DNA of 37,633 nt from an uncultured Verrucomicrobiales bacterium (lineage in GTDB: Bacteria; Verrucomicrobiota; Verrucomicrobiia; Verrucomicrobiales; Akkermansiaceae). The position numbers and the translations under genes were made by a program. This document shows, in pieces, positions 29,435 through 37,633 of this stretch. The stretch is from contig CALFVL010000162.1 of assembly GCA_937928425.1 (NCBI GenBank), positions 1 through 37,633 on the forward strand. Reading direction: 5' to 3'. Under the pieces are notes generated by a model. It saw only the letters and a program-made list of their open reading frames with translations, searched no databases and was not told where the DNA came from. The number at the start of each line of letters is the position of its first letter. Within the stretch, counting starts at the first letter, position 1.

Positions 29435-31141
29435 ATGTCTGACGTCAAACTCTCAAAAAACGAATATATTAAGATCGATAGTAACTATCTCCGTGGAACG
29501 ATCGCAGAAGGTTTAGCAGATGAGTCTACGGGGGCAGTTTCTAAAGACGATGAGCAACTCCTTAAATTCCACGGAACTTACCAACAAGACGACCGTGATG
29601 TGAGAATAGAGCGGAAGCGCGCTAAGCTGGAAAAGGCCTTTAGCTTTATGATCCGAGTGCGAGTGCCTGGTGGTGTGTCTACGACAGCACAGTGGCTAGA
29701 GATGGACCGGATGGCGAGTGCTTACGGAAATGAGAACTTCAAGTTGACGACGCGACAAGCTTACCAACTGCACGGAATTATCAAAAAGAACCTTAAGCAG
29801 ACGATTAAGGAAATTAATGAGAGCGCGATGGATACGATCGCGGCATGTGGAGATGTGAACCGGAATGTCATGTGTAATCCGAATCCCGCTCTTTCAACGA
29901 CCCATGCTGAGACTCTGAGAGTGGCGCAGGCGATTAGTGATCACCTGACACCGGCGACAGGGGCTTATCATGAAATTTGGCTCGATGGGGAGAAGGTGCA
30001 GAGTTCTGAAGAGGAGACTGAGCCAATTTATGGGAAAACGTATCTGCCACGGAAATTCAAAATTTGCATGGCGATCCCACCGAGCAATGACGTGGATATT
30101 TATTCGCAGTGCCTCGGATTTATTGCGATTGAAGAAGGTGGCAAGTTAGTCGGCTTTAACGTCACCGTAGGTGGCGGAATGGGAATGCATCATGGGCAGG
30201 AAAAGACTTTCCCTCGTATTGCAGATGTCCTCGGGTTTATTCCTGTGGAGAAGGCGGTAGAAGTCGCTGAGGAAGTAGTGAAGATTCAGCGTGACTTTGG
30301 CGACCGCACAGAGCGGAAGCATGCGCGGATGAAGTATACGATTGATGATCGTGGCATCGAGTGGTTCAAGGGTGAGATTGAAAGCCGCTTAGGTTATGAA
30401 ATCGCCGCAGCGCGTGACTTCACTTTTGATAGTAATGGTGACACTTATGGATGGACTGAGACGGAGGATGGGAAAAGCCAGCTTACGATTTATATCGAGA
30501 ATGGCCGCGTGCTAGATACCGCCGATTATCAGCTCCGCACGGGTTTACGGGAAATTGCGAGGATCCATAAGGGCGATATGCGCCTGAGTAGTAACCAGAA
30601 TGTTATTATCGCAGGAGTAGCTGCTGAAGATAAGGCGGGGATCGATCAGTTAATGGAAAAATACGGGATTGCTGCTAAGCAGAACCGTTCGGCGATGCGC
30701 CTTAACTCGATGGCCTGCGTAGCGCTTCCCACTTGTGGACTTTCACTTGCGGAAAGTGAGCGCTATTTGCCTACTCTCATCACTGAGATTGAGGAAATCT
30801 TGGACGAGGTAGGCTTGACTCAAGACGCCATTACCGTGCGTATGACAGGCTGTCCGAATGGATGTGCGCGTCCATACATCGCCGAAATTGCCTTCGTAGG
30901 CCGCGCTCCTGGGAAGTATAACATCCACTTAGGGGGAGGTTTCGTAGGGAACCGGATTGGTGGGATTTGGCAGCGTAGCGTAAAGGGCGAAGAGATCGCT
31001 GGACTGCTCCGCCCTGTCCTAGGACAATATGCGACCGAGCGTCAAGAGGGAGAGAGGTTTGGAGACTTTGTCATTCGCAAGGGAATCATTCATGAGGTGA
31101 CTCATGGTAGTGAAGTTCATAAAGAACACACTTCTGCATGA
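29435..31141 (+). CDS. cysI: Sulfite reductase hemoprotein subunit (CysI)
   Basis: CysI reduces sulfite to sulfide with siroheme and a 4Fe-4S cluster. The four cluster cysteines are clear: C428 and C434 in MACVALPTCGLSLAESER, and C473 and C477 in MTGCPNGCARP. Siroheme-pocket arginines lie in FKLTTRQAYQLHG and the GDVNRNVMCNPNP stretch. At 568 residues it matches E. coli CysI (570) rather than ferredoxin-type plant enzymes. No cysJ flavoprotein is in the window, so the electron donor is unknown. There is no ribosome site before the ATG. It overlaps cysH as ATGA. Confidence 0.95.
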   Translation: MSDVKLSKNEYIKIDSNYLRGTIAEGLADESTGAVSKDDEQLLKFHGTYQQDDRDVRIERKRAKLEKAFSFMIRVRVPGGVSTTAQWLEMDRMASAYGNENFKLTTRQAYQLHGIIKKNLKQTIKEINESAMDTIAACGDVNRNVMCNPNPALSTTHAETLRVAQAISDHLTPATGAYHEIWLDGEKVQSSEEETEPIYGKTYLPRKFKICMAIPPSNDVDIYSQCLGFIAIEEGGKLVGFNVTVGGGMGMHHGQEKTFPRIADVLGFIPVEKAVEVAEEVVKIQRDFGDRTERKHARMKYTIDDRGIEWFKGEIESRLGYEIAAARDFTFDSNGDTYGWTETEDGKSQLTIYIENGRVLDTADYQLRTGLREIARIHKGDMRLSSNQNVIIAGVAAEDKAGIDQLMEKYGIAAKQNRSAMRLNSMACVALPTCGLSLAESERYLPTLITEIEEILDEVGLTQDAITVRMTGCPNGCARPYIAEIAFVGRAPGKYNIHLGGGFVGNRIGGIWQRSVKGEEIAGLLRPVLGQYATERQEGERFGDFVIRKGIIHEVTHGSEVHKEHTSA

Positions 31142-31887
31142 AACACGGTCCTGTAAAAAAGGGGACTAAGTTTTCCGGAGAGCTCACCGCACGAGAGCTG
31201 TCTGATCTTCTGGAGCCACTGAAAGCCCATGAACGTCTCCTTCAGCTGAGGGAGCTTTACGGTGGTGAGCTTGTCGCTAGCACGAGCTTTGGGCTACAGG
31301 CCTCAGCGATGCTTCACTTAATTAGGGAGCATGCGCCAGAGACTCCGATCATCTTCGTAGATACAGGTTATTGCTTCGCAGAGACTTATCAGTTCGCTCA
31401 GAGCTTTATTGATAAGTGGGGACTTGATATTAGGATCTATAACCCCGCGATTTCAGCAGCGCGGCAGGAGGCTCTTTATGGAAGACTGTGGGAAGAAGGA
31501 GCTGAGGGAAACCAAAGATATGCTCTTTTGAATAAGATAGAACCAATGAACCGAGCGCTTAGTGAGATCGGTGCGAAGGTATGGATGAGTGGATTACGCC
31601 GGAGCCAGTCACAGACTCGTGCAGACCGCTCTTTTGCCGAGCAGCAGAGTTCCACCATAAAAGTTTATCCTATTCTGGACTGGGCTGAGCCACAGCTGGC
31701 CTCCTACTTTCATGATCATGCTCTCCCTAGACACCCACTTGAAGCTGAGGGCTATGTCACTATGGGAGACTGGCATTCTACACGAAAACCTCAAGAGGGA
31801 GAGAGCGCTGAAGATACACGGTTTGCTGGGCAGAAATATGAGTGTGGACTCCACGAGGAGTCTGGCCAGAGTGACTTCCAGATCTAA
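31138..31887 (+). CDS. cysH: Phosphoadenosine phosphosulfate reductase (CysH)
   Basis: CysH uses thioredoxin or glutaredoxin to reduce PAPS to sulfite. The substrate loop STSFGLQASAML is near residue 48, VDTGYCFAETY near 85, and the catalytic Cys236 is in KYECGLH near the C-terminus. The paired cysteines that hold a 4Fe-4S cluster in APS reductases are absent. In their place is KIEPMNRAL, as in E. coli PAPS reductase. This predicts that an APS kinase is encoded elsewhere. It is translated in overlap with cysI and is 17 bases from cysK. Confidence 0.94.
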   Translation: MKHGPVKKGTKFSGELTARELSDLLEPLKAHERLLQLRELYGGELVASTSFGLQASAMLHLIREHAPETPIIFVDTGYCFAETYQFAQSFIDKWGLDIRIYNPAISAARQEALYGRLWEEGAEGNQRYALLNKIEPMNRALSEIGAKVWMSGLRRSQSQTRADRSFAEQQSSTIKVYPILDWAEPQLASYFHDHALPRHPLEAEGYVTMGDWHSTRKPQEGESAEDTRFAGQKYECGLHEESGQSDFQI

Positions 31888-31904
31888 CAATAAACCGTAT
31901 TTTT

Positions 31905-32873
31905 ATGAGCATTGCTTCAAATATCGTCAATACCGTCGGCAATACCCCTCTCATTAAACTGAATAGGGTGACAGAAGGCCTCGATTGTGAGGTTCTCGTA
32001 AAGGCCGAGTTTTTTAATCCGCTCTTCAGCGTTAAAGATCGCATTGGTAAGGCCATGATCGAGGCCGCTGAGGAAAGTGGAGAGCTCAAAGCAGGTGGGA
32101 CGATCGTCGAGGCTACCTCAGGTAATACTGGGATAGCCTTAGCCTTTGTGGCACGGGCTAAAGGTTATAAGTGTATCTTGACGATGCCTGAGACGATGTC
32201 GATTGAGCGGCGTATTCTTTTGCGTAGTCTCGGCGCTGAAATCGTCCTGACTCCTGGATCGCGAGGCATGGGAGGAGCTATCGCTAAAGCGAAACAGATT
32301 CTCAGTGAGACGGAAAATTCTTTTGGTCCAAGCCAGTTTGATAACCCTGCGAACCCACAGATCCACCGCGATACCACCGCGCTAGAGATTTGGCGAGATA
32401 CGGATGGAGAGGTTGCGGCACTCGTGACTGGAGTGGGAACAGGTGGGACGATTACAGGAGTGGGTGAGGTCATCAAATCCCTGAACCCAGACTTCAAGGT
32501 GATCGCCGTAGAGCCGAAAGATAGCCCCGTAATAAGCGGAGGAGCTCCAGGGCCTCACAAGATCCAAGGGATCGGCGCTGGATTTATTCCGGGTAATCTG
32601 AATACCGCAATTATTGATGAGGTGATCACGGTTACGAATGAGGAGGCATTCGAAATGGCTCAGCAACTTACCCAGCTAGAAGGGCTGCCCGCGGGTATCT
32701 CAACCGGTGCGAATGTTGCTTCCGCTCTGAAAATCGCTGCCCGCGATGAGTTTAAAGGGAAGCGTATTATAACGATTGCCTGCTCCTCCACCGAGCGATA
32801 CCTCAGCACGCCGCTCGCCGAGATTTATCGTGAAGAAGTAGGCCAGCTTCCAGTCGCGGAACTCCCTGAGTGA
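31905..32873 (+). CDS. cysK: Cysteine synthase (O-acetylserine sulfhydrylase)
   Basis: This PLP enzyme makes cysteine from O-acetylserine and sulfide. PLP Lys44 lies in FSVKDRIG, the substrate loop TSGNTGIAL at 71-79, and the phosphate loop GTGGTITG follows at about 178. The PLP-ring serine sits near the C-terminus in ITIACSSTERYLST. The length of 322 residues is typical for CysK, and nothing marks it as the cystathionine or CysM type. It completes the cysI-cysH-cysK set and is followed by a strong terminator. Confidence 0.95.
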   Translation: MSIASNIVNTVGNTPLIKLNRVTEGLDCEVLVKAEFFNPLFSVKDRIGKAMIEAAEESGELKAGGTIVEATSGNTGIALAFVARAKGYKCILTMPETMSIERRILLRSLGAEIVLTPGSRGMGGAIAKAKQILSETENSFGPSQFDNPANPQIHRDTTALEIWRDTDGEVAALVTGVGTGGTITGVGEVIKSLNPDFKVIAVEPKDSPVISGGAPGPHKIQGIGAGFIPGNLNTAIIDEVITVTNEEAFEMAQQLTQLEGLPAGISTGANVASALKIAARDEFKGKRIITIACSSTERYLSTPLAEIYREEVGQLPVAELPE

Positions 32874-32954: not shown

Positions 32955-33902
32955 TTAGGGATTTGCTTGCTCGACTCTAAAGAAGGCCTTGTCCCCCGGT
33001 AAGAAGGCAGCAGGGAGGAAGAAGGAGCCATTTCCGGCGTCATCAGTGTTATTCCGTAAGGGAAAACGGGCGAAATCATTGTCTAAGCTTAAGGACATGG
33101 CGATTTGATATTCAGTCAGAGGAAGGCCTGTGTAGCTTATGCTTAAATCGCCAGATTCATTTAACTCTGAAGAAGTGATATTGATTTCACGGAGAGGTTC
33201 AGAATCGGGATCTACGAAGATCTCGATCGCGTTGATCATGGTGAAGTCGTTTGAGCCTTGGTTACGGCCTTCAGAAGCAGCGCGGTTGCTGTAAACCAAC
33301 TCGACATCCGTGGCTCCATTAGTGGTGAATTGTCCTTCGAAAATTGCAGGAGTAGCAGTAAGGCCGCCCTCTCCGCTTTGGTCAAATTCCACGGAAGCTT
33401 GGTCGCCTACCGTGATATCAATGAGGCCGGTCTGGCCGCCTGGATCGTGGTGATGAGAGCGGAAGAGATAAGATCCTGCTGGGAGGCCTGAAAGGACGAG
33501 TCTAAGTGGATTGCCTGGGCGGCGAGTGCCTCCACGAGTGTCAGTTCCGATCCAGTCCTGATAGAGAGCTGGGCTAGGCGAGTCGTTTGTTCGGACGATG
33601 AGTTGTTTTGACGTGCGTTCTCCTGTAAGAACATTTCCAGGAGTTCCATTAATCGGGACTGTGAGAGTGGGATCATCATCACCCCAAAATGGAGTGATGC
33701 TTACGGTGGCTCCGAATGCAGTGTAGCTCTGTGTGATAAATGTTGCATTAACCTCATGGTCAGCAAAGTAGCCTTCGAAACCAGGCTCCGGGGTCGCCCC
33801 GGTTAATGAGAAGTCAACTCTGAGCTGACCAGAAGCGATGGATGATGTGAACAAGGTGCAACTTGCCAAGACTGCGAGTTTGGTAAACTGAAAATTCTTC
33901 AT
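32955..33902 (-). CDS. Secreted protein of unknown function
   Basis: The signal peptide spans about residues 1-24, with a cut near SIASG-Q. The mature part is strand-rich and Gly/Thr/Asp-rich. It includes LRLVLSGLPAGSYLFRSHHHDPGG, a pattern seen in carbohydrate- or malectin-like extracellular domains of planctomycetes. The C-terminus has EYQIAMSLSLDNDFARFPL and ends FLPGDKAFFRVEQ. Similar short ends close many verrucomicrobial secreted proteins, so it may be a small fibronectin-like or sorting-linked tail. I cannot name a substrate. It reads toward the cysK terminator and is separated from the next upstream gene by a hairpin. Confidence 0.75.
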   Translation of the reverse strand: MKNFQFTKLAVLASCTLFTSSIASGQLRVDFSLTGATPEPGFEGYFADHEVNATFITQSYTAFGATVSITPFWGDDDPTLTVPINGTPGNVLTGERTSKQLIVRTNDSPSPALYQDWIGTDTRGGTRRPGNPLRLVLSGLPAGSYLFRSHHHDPGGQTGLIDITVGDQASVEFDQSGEGGLTATPAIFEGQFTTNGATDVELVYSNRAASEGRNQGSNDFTMINAIEIFVDPDSEPLREINITSSELNESGDLSISYTGLPLTEYQIAMSLSLDNDFARFPLRNNTDDAGNGSFFLPAAFLPGDKAFFRVEQANP

Positions 33903-34059: not shown

Positions 34060-34635
34060 CTAATTACTCAAAAGGAGGTCATCATTGGTCCAGAAAACCT
34101 TGTCTTCTCCTGCTGACCGGATTTCGGGGTTGTCGATTTCAATAAAGTGGAAGTTCAGAGGCGTGCCCCATCGATCAACTAATTCTTTATCCTGATTTAG
34201 ATACTTAAAATCGGGTGGGATAAATTGAAGATTTAGGACATTTTTTCCGAGCAGCGCCTTTGAAATACTTTGATTACTATCGGTTGGGAGGAGAGTCTTC
34301 CCTTTTAGGTGCGTGTTGAAGATGTGTAATACGGAGTTCAGATAGGAGAGGTCGAGGTGTGGAGGGCTCTGTGGGTTACCATACTCTGCTAGAAAGACTT
34401 CTGTCTGAGAGAGGGGTGACTGTTTTTCCTTTCTAGTTTGATGGGGAGGAGGCGGCTTTTTAGCCTGAGTGCTTTTTTGGGAGATCTTCTTATTTTCGAC
34501 GGAATTTGAGTGACTTTGTGGCAGTTCGGGTGGCAGAAACTTGTCACTTTTTTCTGGGCGAGAGTTCAAAAAAAATATCCCACAGCCAATGATGATGAGA
34601 GCGAGGAGCCATATGGCTTTTCTAAAATTACCCAT
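34060..34635 (-). CDS. Membrane-anchored protein with a pseudopilin-like C-terminus
   Basis: An N-terminal membrane helix (about 7-25) is followed by a Lys/Pro/Ser-rich linker (about 30-75) and a small globular part. The C-terminus reads DRWGTPLNFHFIEI, then IRSAGEDKVFWTNDDLL. This matches the calcium-binding 'WGTP ... IRSAG.D ... TDDD' loop of GspG-type type II secretion pseudopilins. It has no prepilin peptidase motif at its N-terminus, so it is not a true pilin; the fold may have been reused. It is the last gene of the DUF1800-DUF1501 set (30 bases after DUF1501), and from memory this arrangement recurs in Verrucomicrobia. Confidence 0.75.
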   Translation of the reverse strand: MGNFRKAIWLLALIIIGCGIFFLNSRPEKSDKFLPPELPQSHSNSVENKKISQKSTQAKKPPPPHQTRKEKQSPLSQTEVFLAEYGNPQSPPHLDLSYLNSVLHIFNTHLKGKTLLPTDSNQSISKALLGKNVLNLQFIPPDFKYLNQDKELVDRWGTPLNFHFIEIDNPEIRSAGEDKVFWTNDDLLLSN

Positions 34636-34665
34636 ATGAAAAGGTAGAAACGAGGAGGCCTGATT

Positions 34666-36096
34666 TTAGGCCAGGAAGCCGATCGGACAGCCCCCTGGGC
34701 TATGGGTGTAAAAGTTGGATAGGTTAGGGAAGACGTTCTCAAGTTCTGAGCCTGGTAGGCCTAACCATAAGGCGAGTTCTGCGAAGTATTCGTCCACCGA
34801 TGTGGTGGGGACGAAGCGACCATTTGTCCCTGCATCAAGGCCACTTCCAAGTGCAAACTGGCCTTCGTCCGGGAATTCACCGTAGATGGCACCTCCGTTA
34901 ACGGAGCCGCCCATCATAATCATATTCCCCCCCCAAGCGTGATCAGTTCCTAGGCCATTTGAGCGAATAGTACGAGAGAACTCGGAGCAGGTGAAGGTGG
35001 TGACTTGATCACGAAGGCCGAGAGTCCCTAGTTCATTCCAGAATTCAGAGAGGCTATTATCTAGCTCAGAGAGACGTTCTTGGTGATCCATAAGTAAATT
35101 CGTGTGCGCATCATAACGGGGGTGTTGAACGAAGAAAATCTGCCTCCGGTGGCCGAGGGTCTCGCGAGCGGCGATGGTCCGAGAAACTGCACGGAGTTGC
35201 CTAGATAGCATATTGTCACGGAAGTTATTGGGCTCATTTGTCTCATTGAAGGCATTTGCAAAAGCTTCGGCGCTGTCAAAAGCCCGCATTGATTCCTGTG
35301 CGAATGCACTTCTTAGGATGTGGCTTTGTTCTTGTTGGATCAATGATCTTGCGGTGTTTACTCTGGTCTGATTCAGCCCAGAAAGGTTTTGGGTCCCACC
35401 TAGGATTTCTGCTCCGTCGCCTTGGATCGTGTATCCGAAGGCTGATCCTCCGGTCAGCATGATTTGGTTCCCGGCAAGGGAGATGTTCATCGAGAGTCTG
35501 TTTGAGATGTTATTGGCCATCACTCGATCGGCAAGGCGACCAGCCCAGCCGGTAGATCCCACATTTTCTGGGAAGCCGGTTTGCCAGGTCGTTGATTGGT
35601 CATTATGGGAACCGAGAGCTCTAGGGACTCTGACGGTTTGGCTCCGGACCTGTTGTGGGGTGGCGGGCTCTACCAGTGTTCCTACATTGGCTAGGAATGC
35701 TGCATCACCAGAGTTAAAGATATCACGTAATCTCGGCATTGCGCTATTCACAGCAAAGGTCCGTCCAGGCGTGTTTGTCACATTTATTGGGAGCACCGCG
35801 GAAATAGGGGCTCCTGTCCCAGGTGTGGGGATAGTTCCGGTGAGGGGGAGTGCAATGTTAGAGCGTAGATTTTGGTAATTTTGATACTCTGATGCTGAGG
35901 TAGGGATCAGGGTATTAAATGAGTCATTACCCCCACCTTGAAAGACACAAACAATCGCGCGATAGTCGTCTGAGTCAGGTGCATCAGCAGCGACTGCATT
36001 ATTGATCATTTTTAGGTTTAGGAGGGTGTTGGTGACTCCGAGAGTGCCGAGGCCAAGACCTGGAAGATTAGAGAGAAAGTTACGACGAGTGTGCAT
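34666..36096 (-). CDS. DUF1501 family exported protein (Tat-type leader)
   Basis: The leader MHTRRNFLSNLPGLGLGTLG has the twin-arginine motif RRNFL followed by a hydrophobic stretch, so export by Tat is expected. The mature domain opens with AIVCVFQGGGNDSFNTLIP, the usual DUF1501 start, which resembles sulfatase/alkaline-phosphatase-like folds. Other family stretches are MPRLRDIFNSGDAAFLANVG, LGSHNDQSTTWQTGFP and TFTCSEFSRTIRSNGLGTDH with AWGGNMI. The His and Asp residues in HNDQ, SEF and DHAWGG could bind metal. The 476 residues are typical. Its biochemical role is not established. It follows the DUF1800 gene by 35 bases. Confidence 0.92.
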   Translation of the reverse strand: MHTRRNFLSNLPGLGLGTLGVTNTLLNLKMINNAVAADAPDSDDYRAIVCVFQGGGNDSFNTLIPTSASEYQNYQNLRSNIALPLTGTIPTPGTGAPISAVLPINVTNTPGRTFAVNSAMPRLRDIFNSGDAAFLANVGTLVEPATPQQVRSQTVRVPRALGSHNDQSTTWQTGFPENVGSTGWAGRLADRVMANNISNRLSMNISLAGNQIMLTGGSAFGYTIQGDGAEILGGTQNLSGLNQTRVNTARSLIQQEQSHILRSAFAQESMRAFDSAEAFANAFNETNEPNNFRDNMLSRQLRAVSRTIAARETLGHRRQIFFVQHPRYDAHTNLLMDHQERLSELDNSLSEFWNELGTLGLRDQVTTFTCSEFSRTIRSNGLGTDHAWGGNMIMMGGSVNGGAIYGEFPDEGQFALGSGLDAGTNGRFVPTTSVDEYFAELALWLGLPGSELENVFPNLSNFYTHSPGGCPIGFLA

Positions 36097-36131
36097 AGAT
36101 TCAGGTGTTATGTGTGGGATTTTGCGTAGGC

Positions 36132-37633
36132 TTAGCGTAGGAAAGCTCCATCTGGATGTGTGACAGCAAGGTAGATTGCCAATTGAACTCGGGAGGTGTT
36201 TTGAGTAGCTCCTGAGGGGATGGATTCCAGCGCGGCGTTGATTTGACTCCGAGTGTCTGCAGACATTGTTCCGTGACAGAAGATGAGGTTTACTTCATCA
36301 AGAAGGCGGGAGATATCGTCTGCGAGTGGGAGGAAGTGACGGAAAGTTGGTCTGCTAGTAGGCGTAAACCGAGGGCGAACGGTGTGGAGTTGATCGGTTA
36401 AGGCAATCCAGAACCGGTTCGGTAGGCCAACAGCGGTGACAGAGTTTAAGATCTGAAATTCAGGACTGAGGAGATCATTTTCCTCGACGAGTCCAGGGTG
36501 AGAATAACCTGGCTCGTAGAAACTGAAGACAGATTGTTGCAAGAATGGGTATTGCTCAAAGGCTCCAAAAAATTCGTGTGGTCTCCCTCTGGTTGTGAGT
36601 GCCCAAAAGTGAATGCCTGTGAGGTCGTCCCGGAAAGGAATTTCTTCTCCCATTCCTGTGGCTCTCGCGAGTGAAGTTAGGCGGAGCATGGGGGCTTTGA
36701 GGCGCCCGTGGTCTGCTTGGTTTCTGCGTGGTAACGACCGGGCTTCTGAGTCGAGTAAGATGGCTCTAATTACGGCAGCTAGATTCCCGCGAACTCCATT
36801 CCCGTCATCTTCAAATACGCGTGAGACTCTTTCGACATAAGCTGGGCTCGGGTTTGATGTGACGAGGTGTTGAATAAGAAAATGGCTAGTAAAGGGGGCG
36901 CAATTTGGGTGGTTGAACAAGATGTCAATGGTGTCTTCAATATCGTCCATACCGGTGCGTCCGGGCTCATCAGGGAAGGCTGGGAGAGATTGCCCAAGAA
37001 AGACTTTTCTTCCTCCATTCCCGTAAAACTCAGCGAGAACTCCTGTGCCGTCGTCATGGAGAGCTTCAGAGATGATCATGCGGCCGATTGATGCTCCGTC
37101 AGCAGTACTGACGGGCCTACGTCCTAGAGGGAGTGGGCCTATCTGAAGACCGGTAAAAACACGTGCAAGTTGGGTAATGTCACGGTTGTCGTAAGTTGGA
37201 ATGGGCTGTCCGTTGCTATCGAGCTTACGAGTGCCGTCTAAGTTAAGCTCGAAAAGTCCGATGCTGAAGAGCTGCATGACTTCGCGAGCATAGTTCTCAT
37301 CAGGGAATTGATTATTTGCAGGATCCGCTGGGCTATTGTTAAGGCTAGAAAGGAAACCTCCCATATTGGGGTTAAGAGTCATTTCTAGGAGAATATCACG
37401 ATAGTTACCGAAGGCGTTTTCTAATAAAATATCATAAGCTCTACTCCGGGGGCGTGAGGTTCCGCTTAAGTGGCGGCCTGTGACAAAACGTTGATTTAGT
37501 GCCCAAGCGACCCGTTGACGAAGTTGGTCATGAGCAAAGAGTGCATTTCGCATCCAGATAGTTGAGAGATTTTCTTCTGAGACAAAGACGAGAGAACTTC
37601 CACTATTAAAGCGATAGGGGAGTTGATTAATCG
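36132..37633 (-). CDS. DUF1800 family protein, N-terminus beyond the right window edge
   Basis: The frame stays open from an ATG at 37553 to the edge: codons before it read INQLPYRFNSGSSLVFVSEE and onward, so the true start is outside the window. About 499 residues are visible. Family hallmarks are DQLRQRVAWALNQRFVTG, AFGNYRDILLEMTLNPNMGG, PDENYAREVMQLFSIGLFEL and ITQLARVFTGL. The C-terminal part has FASHFLIQHLV-like spacing (SHFLIQHLVTSNPSPAYV) and ends at a stop at 36132. DUF1800 and DUF1501 genes usually come as a pair, as here, and their joint function is unknown. An exported location is likely because of its partner. Confidence 0.92.
   Translation of the reverse strand, partial: INQLPYRFNSGSSLVFVSEENLSTIWMRNALFAHDQLRQRVAWALNQRFVTGRHLSGTSRPRSRAYDILLENAFGNYRDILLEMTLNPNMGGFLSSLNNSPADPANNQFPDENYAREVMQLFSIGLFELNLDGTRKLDSNGQPIPTYDNRDITQLARVFTGLQIGPLPLGRRPVSTADGASIGRMIISEALHDDGTGVLAEFYGNGGRKVFLGQSLPAFPDEPGRTGMDDIEDTIDILFNHPNCAPFTSHFLIQHLVTSNPSPAYVERVSRVFEDDGNGVRGNLAAVIRAILLDSEARSLPRRNQADHGRLKAPMLRLTSLARATGMGEEIPFRDDLTGIHFWALTTRGRPHEFFGAFEQYPFLQQSVFSFYEPGYSHPGLVEENDLLSPEFQILNSVTAVGLPNRFWIALTDQLHTVRPRFTPTSRPTFRHFLPLADDISRLLDEVNLIFCHGTMSADTRSQINAALESIPSGATQNTSRVQLAIYLAVTHPDGAFLR

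What the first reader, a model, noticed from the sequence alone, without database searches (positions are those of the whole stretch)
34060..37633. DUF1800, DUF1501 and pseudopilin-like protein as one exported set
The DUF1501 protein has a twin-arginine leader, DUF1800 is its usual partner, and the third gene has a GspG-like calcium-loop C-terminus without a prepilin leader. All three are close together on one strand, with a hairpin after the last. A pseudopilin fold reused next to an uncharacterised Tat-exported pair suggests an envelope complex whose function is not described.
Basis: partly seen in the sequence, partly recalled or inferred. Interest (0 to 1): 0.5.

Follow-up and report, generated by a model that had tools for sequence, protein, structure and literature searches.

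The report
Three-gene exported cassette with tethered pseudopilin head
Some Verrucomicrobiota bacteria carry a conserved set of three genes for exported proteins, in which a piece of a secretion-machine filament protein appears to have been cut loose from the filament and fixed to the membrane beside two proteins of unknown function.

Summary
The three genes are real and form a conserved set in part of the Verrucomicrobiota. In the window's genome the small gene follows DUF1800-DUF1501 at 4 of 4 DUF1800 loci. In 54 searched genomes, many picked for carrying it, it lies downstream of 55 of 82 low-scoring, mostly long DUF1800 genes but of 1 of 43 canonical ones. In an even phylum sample without the own genome only 5 of 28 DUF1800 loci have it. 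Of 81 relatives from public contigs, 75 follow DUF1501 on the same strand. The small protein's C-terminal half is GspG-like: the top seven PDB rows are type II pseudopilins, Z 5.0-6.8, next 2.7. None of 81 shows a prepilin leader; there is a membrane helix and a proline-rich linker instead. The claimed hairpin is not supported; DUF1800 is cut by the contig end.

Best reading: a non-polymerising GspG head, tethered in the inner membrane, holds the Tat-exported DUF1501 protein in the periplasm; its divergence follows DUF1501 more than DUF1800 (partial rho 0.65 against 0.14). Bolder: it loads the pair into type II secretion. No binding, localisation or activity is shown.

The parts
36132..37631 (-). 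DUF1800 protein, 499 aa of a longer protein; its N-terminal part lies beyond the contig end
   Evidence: PF08811 3.1e-67, profile positions 69-415; contig length equals the window; the three other DUF1800 genes of this genome have open frames of 1031-1076 aa
34666..36096 (-). DUF1501 protein, 476 aa, with a twin-arginine (Tat-type) signal at its start
   Evidence: PF07394 4.5e-41; RR-x-F at the N-terminus seen in the translation and in 72 of 73 filtered relatives (65 strict, 7 by eye); D58, H164, D329, H331, D385, H386 invariant in 78 of 78 proteins of its class, this one included
34060..34635 (-). 191-aa protein: membrane helix (residues 4-24), linker (about 25-73), GspG-like head (about 87-191), no prepilin leader
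   Evidence: AlphaFold2 with 73 sequences, mean pLDDT 87, ten-residue blocks of the head 89-98, last residue 60; PDB comparison; 0 of 81 relatives with a leader by pattern
34063..34380 (-). GspG-like head domain (residues 86-191) including the calcium-loop-like end IRSAGEDKVFWTNDD
   Evidence: Invariant G130, D154, W156, H163, G176, D178, D185, D186 in 73 of 73; S174 in 72 of 73; aligned with T2SSG

Best explanation
The cassette encodes an exported three-part unit. DUF1501 carries a Tat signal, so it should cross the membrane folded; DUF1800 has a Sec-type N-terminus in complete relatives. The small protein is a type II secretion major-pseudopilin head without a prepilin leader and without the continuous assembling helix. 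It stays in the inner membrane as a single-pass anchor with its head reaching into the periplasm on a flexible linker, and there it binds and positions the DUF1501 protein (and through it DUF1800). Shown by computation: the gene set and its conservation, the GspG-like fold, the lack of a leader motif, the predicted membrane helix and linker, the conserved loop residues, and the closer co-divergence with DUF1501. Inferred: periplasmic orientation, binding to DUF1501, calcium in the loop, and enzymatic activity of DUF1501.
For: Conserved adjacency: 75 of 81 relatives lie within 900 bases downstream of DUF1501 on the same strand, 68 of them with DUF1800 just upstream; 21 overlap the DUF1501 stop. 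Adjacency survives changed gene order (small gene first in L053, L125 and L182; divergent in L052, the same contig as L173). GspG-like fold and profile similarity; PF08334 exceeds its cut-off on four family members, G138:C2, G040:C6, G144:C5 and G001:C275 (matched to small-gene places). No leader in 81 of 81 by pattern; mean net charge of the first 9 residues +1.8 and a linker of median 44 residues with 17% proline. Divergence of the small protein tracks DUF1501 (rho 0.75, partial 0.65) more than DUF1800 (0.51, partial 0.14) in 59 triples out of 81 small genes. Among 729 flanking frames no family outside the trio is shared by more than 10 of 80 loci, apart from frames opposite the trio.
Against: No interaction was tested. 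27 of 82 low-scoring DUF1800 loci lack the small gene downstream. Six of the 27 are canonical by their DUF1501; of the other 21, two have it elsewhere nearby, three are cut by contig ends and 16 lack it, so DUF1501/DUF1800 can do without it. In the phylum sample without the own genome only 5 of 28 loci have it. The distance correlation is confounded by species descent. Foldseek alone gives only E 0.14 for its best hit, GspG 3g20, and the aligner's own note warns that Z under 8 may mean only a common arrangement. Of 73 members only 8 match T2SSG at E up to 1, best 4e-4; the window member does not.
Confidence: 0.45

Rival explanations
1. The head is a cargo-loading adaptor for the type II secretion system: it keeps a GspG surface that the secretion machine recognises, picks up the folded Tat-exported DUF1501 (with DUF1800) in the periplasm and delivers it for release to the cell surface.
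For: The head resembles GspG. 23 of 23 family genomes with the small gene have a T2SSG match of 60 bits or more. Of 12 genomes without the small gene (9, 3), 8 have one. G022, with a DUF1800-DUF1501 pair but no small gene (L181), has no T2SSG match. Six complete DUF1800 relatives scanned: TSP3 repeats over the cut-off in 5, PA14 in 2, Laminin_G_3 in 1, CHRD in 1; that such domains usually lie outside the cell is recalled.
Against: G109 has three small-gene matches but no T2SSG match (86% complete, so it may be missing). T2SSG is common anyway, so co-occurrence discriminates weakly. No cargo or machine contact is shown.
Confidence: 0.25
2. The small protein has an independent envelope role and is only co-transcribed with the pair.
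For: 16 divergent-type pairs lack it; the tree needs at least 15 changes of its presence, 12 forced by well-supported branches.
Against: 56 of 67 small genes lie within 5 kb downstream of a DUF1800 gene on the same strand; gene order can change while the neighbourhood is kept.
Confidence: 0.2
3. It is still a working pseudopilin with an odd or overlooked leader, joining the secretion pseudopilus.
For: GspG-like fold and loop.
Against: 0 of 81 reading frames match a leader pattern even 80 residues upstream (one frame, L100, is cut by its locus end); the linker separates the membrane helix from the head; leader-bearing GspG genes exist separately in related genomes (13 extracted).
Confidence: 0.05

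Closest known systems
Type II secretion major pseudopilin GspG/PulG (Pfam T2SSG, PF08334)
   Same: Fold of the C-terminal domain over 87-96 aligned residues; D-x-W and S-x-G-x-D ... DD pattern
   Different: No prepilin leader, a linker between membrane helix and head, an invariant histidine (H163) where 11 of 13 T2SSG proteins have arginine or lysine (by eye), and a DUF1501/DUF1800 neighbourhood
Canonical DUF1800-DUF1501 pairs, including those beside bacterial chitin synthases (PMC5122149, passages read)
   Same: Both families as neighbours, twin-arginine signal on DUF1501
   Different: The pair here belongs to a divergent DUF1800 clade, mostly with long N-terminal extensions, and has the third gene; loci scoring as canonical lack it (1 of 43 has it, and that one falls in the long clade)
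Planctomycete-type PSCyt1-PSCyt2-PSD1 (DUF1549/DUF1553) with DUF1501
   Same: A large protein followed by DUF1501, also present in this genome (L203); the last third of DUF1800 weakly matches the PSD1 region (E 1.8e-4, below the cut-off)
   Different: Carries a cytochrome c domain; no GspG-like gene was seen after DUF1501 in L203 (frames of 300 aa or more listed), and these loci were not searched systematically
Expanded pulG-like pseudopilins of Verruconatronum alginivorum (PMC13274419, passages read)
   Same: Many pseudopilin-like genes in one Verrucomicrobiota genome (67 homologues reported there), one beside alginate-degradation genes
   Different: Described there as pulG-like type II secretion pseudopilins; the main text holds neither DUF1800 nor DUF1501

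Membership tests
GspG major pseudopilin (T2SSG) | GspG fold of the C-terminal domain | tested here: met
   Top seven rows are type II pseudopilins (six titled main or major pseudopilin, one a pseudopilus filament model), Z 5.0-6.8, next 2.7; 116 chains aligned. Z is below 8, so the profile result is needed beside it
GspG major pseudopilin (T2SSG) | Match to PF08334 over its cut-off | tested here: inconclusive
   Four family members exceed it; the window protein does not match; 8 of 73 match at E up to 1
GspG major pseudopilin (T2SSG) | Prepilin leader with cleavage site and +5 glutamate | tested here: not met
   0 of 81 frames by pattern
GspG major pseudopilin (T2SSG) | Continuous N-terminal helix running from the membrane into the head | tested here: not met
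   Helix 4-24, then coil of lower confidence to 73 in the model
GspG major pseudopilin (T2SSG) | Location in a type II secretion operon | tested here: not met
   75 of 81 follow DUF1501. In five single-contig genomes (G019, G036, G048, G082, G131) no small gene lies within 50 kb of a T2SSG or GspD-model match (places compared by eye)
GspG major pseudopilin (T2SSG) | Calcium bound in the C-terminal loop | not testable with these tools
   Only residue conservation seen: S174 72/73, D178, D185, D186 73/73
DUF1501 (PF07394) | Pfam match over cut-off | tested here: met
   141.7 bits against 27
Alkaline-phosphatase-like metalloenzyme (superfamily link of DUF1501 recalled) | Conserved Asp/His metal-type residues | tested here: inconclusive
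   Six Asp/His residues invariant in 78 of 78, but their role as ligands was not tested; no PDB relative by sequence
Tat substrate | Twin-arginine signal | tested here: met
   Window protein; 65 of 73 relatives by the strict pattern, 7 more by eye. By motif only, not by export
DUF1800 (PF08811) | Pfam match over cut-off | tested here: met
   228 bits against 26.1

The most novel reading that the evidence does not exclude
A pseudopilin head freed from the filament works as a membrane-tethered loading adaptor that feeds a Tat-folded DUF1501 protein and its large DUF1800 partner into the type II secretion system: a dedicated cargo-recognition subunit derived from the machine's own main filament protein.
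Probability: 0.2. Interest if true: 0.75.

Novelty: new variant of a known kind. Interest (0 to 1): 0.5.

Why it matters
How the type II secretion system recognises its cargo is an open question (recalled). A GspG-like head that is fixed in the membrane and genetically tied to one exported pair gives a small, testable case. It also adds a likely partner to a subclass of DUF1501 and DUF1800, two widespread uncharacterised families. Full-text searches of the held library found 2 papers naming both, 4 naming DUF1800 and 10 naming DUF1501; none of the passages I read describes a pseudopilin-like third gene. I did not read passages for PMC3597751 or for five of the ten DUF1501 papers.

Tried and rejected
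Hairpin/terminator after the small gene: rejected.

Lipoprotein reading of the window protein (C18 follows a lipobox-like stretch): rejected as a family trait, since 1 of 81 relatives has a lipobox-like motif; it stays possible for the window protein alone.

Sequence-only search against solved structures: nothing above chance for the small protein (best E 0.11 and 0.18), DUF1501 or DUF1800.

A first profile comparison with T2SSG gave only score 14.4 (probability 2.1): the full small protein was compared with a 12-protein set that held wrong reading frames. After cleaning (13 T2SSG proteins taken by pattern from 30 loci, 17 loci not represented) and using the head alone the score was 32.6.

DUF1800 structure: confident helical model, pTM 0.89, but Foldseek's best E is 0.11 and the second look gave at best Z 5.4 on 61 residues. 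This is inconclusive and not a claim of a new fold.

Search for a fourth conserved neighbour among 729 flanking frames: the commonest cluster (21 loci) lies entirely on the opposite strand and its representative overlaps the small gene and DUF1501, so I take it for shadow frames. The next (10 loci) reads to me like a transporter-linked lipoprotein (no family search) and I take it for shared descent.

Dropped rows. A1 uses 31 of 33 small proteins (L028, start unsure, and L046, close to L035, left out). A2 uses 10 of those 31. A3 uses 73 of 82 (seven judged by eye close to kept ones, and the unsure starts L100 and L127, left out). A4 uses 41 of 51 DUF1800 domains plus the window. A5 uses 19 relatives of 73 plus the window. 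For one search I left out six matches below the cut-off and joined or dropped second pieces of two genes. From I left out the ten weakest small-gene matches (E 7e-8 or worse) and joined two pieces, while weak matches (down to E 3.9e-7) were kept. The 300-bit threshold was chosen after seeing the scores, and 23 of its 54 genomes are ones that had the small gene; one search gives the recount on the phylum sample alone. The 80 loci are the best of 216 and were found with the small protein, so they cannot say how often DUF1800 loci have it. L204 was fetched and not analysed.
Full report
What is there. The last 3.6 kb of the window carry three minus-strand genes: DUF1800 (36132-37631), DUF1501 (34666-36096) and a 191-aa protein (34060-34635). 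Pfam confirms the first two (228 and 141.7 bits, far above the cut-offs) and finds nothing over a cut-off for the third; NCBIfam has nothing for any of them. The window is a whole contig, number 162 of a 2.57-Mb genome in 168 contigs, so DUF1800 is cut at its start; the three other DUF1800 genes of this genome have open frames of 1031-1076 aa. Genome G027 of the same family holds a contig of 36,644 bases (L019) whose small protein is 100% identical to that on an Akkermansiaceae contig of the same length (L048), so the window very probably comes from that family.

Is it a set? In the own genome all four DUF1800 genes are followed by DUF1501 and by a relative of the small gene. A fifth small gene lies at the edge of contig 133. 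In 145 genomes of the family, 89 have a relative of the small protein, from 13 of 16 genera. A peptide-pattern scan of a collection of 84,980 species' genomes matched 271 stretches, of which 216 encode a relative; of the best 80 loci, 79 have record titles that I recognise as Verrucomicrobiota lineages and one is titled only 'uncultured bacterium'. Of 81 small genes in those loci, 75 follow DUF1501 on the same strand within 900 bases, 68 of these with DUF1800 just upstream; 62 gaps are 60 bases or less and 21 overlap. In L053, L125 and L182 the small gene stands in front of DUF1800, and in L052 (the same contig as L173) it is divergent. Neighbourhood kept through rearrangement is stronger evidence than order alone.

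How often do DUF1800 loci have it? In an even sample of 69 rather complete genomes of the phylum, 16 have DUF1800, at 32 loci; only those 16 were searched for the small gene. It is beside 9 of the 32 loci, in 5 of 16 genomes; without the own genome, 5 of 28 loci in 4 of 15 genomes. So across the phylum it is absent from most DUF1800 loci. Adding 38 genomes of the family and order, 23 of them picked because they had the small gene, gives 125 loci. Where the PF08811 score is under 300 bits, 55 of 82 have the small gene within 5 kb downstream on the same strand; where it is 300 or more, 1 of 43 (Fisher p 1e-13). The threshold is post hoc and the frequency is raised by the choice of genomes, but the split by class is clear. 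I fetched 40 of the loci, namely all 27 low-scoring ones without the small gene and 13 high-scoring ones. By the likeness of their DUF1501 (own-class profile, E 1e-98 or better against 1e-27 to 1e-46), 6 of the 27 are canonical. Of the other 21, two have the small gene elsewhere nearby, three are cut by contig ends and 16 lack it. The one high-scoring locus with the gene, L183, falls in the long class. In a tree of 99 DUF1800 domains, the long class forms one clade of 95 rows on a long branch with support 100, against only four canonical rows that passed the coverage filter, and the program warns of long branches meeting. Within the clade the small gene is beside 74 and not found beside 21; over all rows at least 15 changes are needed, 12 forced by well-supported branches. 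Most rows with the gene were found by searching with it, so the tree shows patchy loss or gain, not frequency.

What the small protein is. AlphaFold2 with 73 sequences gives mean pLDDT 87: a helix at 4-24, a weaker stretch to about 73, and a head whose ten-residue blocks have pLDDT 89-98. Foldseek's two best PDB hits are GspG of E. coli (E 0.14) and PulG (E 2.1), weak on their own. In the finer alignment the top seven rows of 116 chains aligned are all type II pseudopilins, Z 5.0-6.8 over 87-96 residues of the head, and the next is 2.7; the tool warns that Z under 8 can be a common arrangement. A profile of the head against 13 T2SSG proteins of related genomes scores 32.6; 60 column shuffles score 11.8 on average, 19.4 at most. 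PF08334 exceeds its cut-off on four relatives. None of 81 has a prepilin leader by pattern. The first nine residues are positively charged (mean +1.8) and the linker is 17% proline. Invariant in 73 of 73 are G130, D154, W156, H163, G176, D178, D185 and D186; that the loop binds calcium as in GspG is inference. So it is a GspG-like head on a membrane tether. It fails as a pseudopilin on the leader, the continuous helix and the operon, but it keeps the fold.

The partners. DUF1501 of this class keeps D58, S163, H164, D329, H331, D385 and H386 in 78 of 78, and in 17 or 18 of 18 canonical proteins, which suits an active metalloenzyme; its link to the alkaline phosphatase superfamily is recalled and not tested. 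Complete DUF1800 relatives begin with Sec-type hydrophobic stretches (seven N-termini seen by eye). Of six scanned, five have TSP3 repeats over the cut-off, two PA14, one Laminin_G_3 and one CHRD, all with their best stretch in front of the DUF1800 domain. The DUF1800 domain gives a confident helical model without a clear PDB match. The divergence of the small protein follows DUF1501 (rho 0.75) more than DUF1800 (0.51) in 59 triples; partial values 0.65 and 0.14, and the difference stayed above 0.27 in 200 subsamples. Shared species descent affects all of these, but it does not by itself predict a difference between the two partners.

Mechanism. I commit to a tether: the head, anchored in the inner membrane, holds Tat-exported DUF1501, and with it DUF1800, on the periplasmic side (0.45). 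The bolder version is loading into the type II secretion system (0.25 as a rival). T2SSG matches of 60 bits or more are present in 23 of 23 family genomes with the small gene and in 8 of 12 without it (9, 3). Against this, G109 has the small gene and no T2SSG match (86% complete). G022, with a pair but no small gene, has no T2SSG: a single suggestive case. The GspD model matched in 35 of 35 genomes, never over its own cut-off. On re-checking I added the phylum recount, G109 and the three further genomes without T2SSG; they pull in different directions and I left the odds as they were.

Literature. In the held open-access library two papers hold both DUF names. PMC5122149 (passages) reports DUF1800-DUF1501 beside bacterial chitin synthases and the Tat motif. 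PMC6653060 (passage) lists both names in a table. PMC4452313 and PMC4960237 (passages) mention DUF1501 modules in Planctomycetes and Verrucomicrobia. PMC7563939 (passages) lists DUF1800 among upregulated domains of a coccolithophore. PMC5615132 shows no occurrence in its main text. PMC13274419 (passages) reports 67 pulG-like proteins in one Verrucomicrobiota isolate; PMC12487129 (passages) reports pilins and pseudopilins enriched in two Verrucomicrobiae populations. Searches and the passages read showed me no description of a GspG-like third gene; subscription journals are mostly not held.

Verdict. A real, conserved and, as far as these searches go, undescribed cassette with a new variant of the GspG fold, patchily present in the phylum. 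Function is inferred; interest 0.5.

Noticed in passing
window 32955-33902 (-): A 315-aa secreted-looking protein follows the trio on the same strand after 157 bases; no Pfam or NCBIfam match.
   Followed up: no
L198 3729-7046, L203 2855-6013: The last third of DUF1800 weakly matches the PSD1 (DUF1553) region of two of three PSCyt1-PSCyt2-PSD1 proteins scanned, which also pair with DUF1501 (E 1.8e-4 and 4e-3, below the cut-off). The two large DUF1501 partners may be related.
   Followed up: partly
L013 (contig 88) and L014 (contig 93): Two of the genome's four trios are near copies (DUF1800 branches 0.07 and 0.04), which suggests a recent duplication.
   Followed up: no
window 29435-32873 (+): Three adjacent plus-strand genes that look like sulfite reductase, PAPS reductase (PF01507) and cysteine synthase: ordinary sulfur assimilation. 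The first and last names are read from the translations, not from a family search.
   Followed up: no
genus group g3 of the family: All 8 sampled genomes of one genus (2.4-3.2 Mb, nearly complete) lack a DUF1800 match, unlike most of the hand-picked genomes of the family. The genus is unnamed; Akkermansia is a guess.
   Followed up: no
L098: A contig titled Akkermansia muciniphila carries the trio, although PMC4960237 (passage) says A. muciniphila lacks the DUF1501 module; the record may be misnamed.
   Followed up: no
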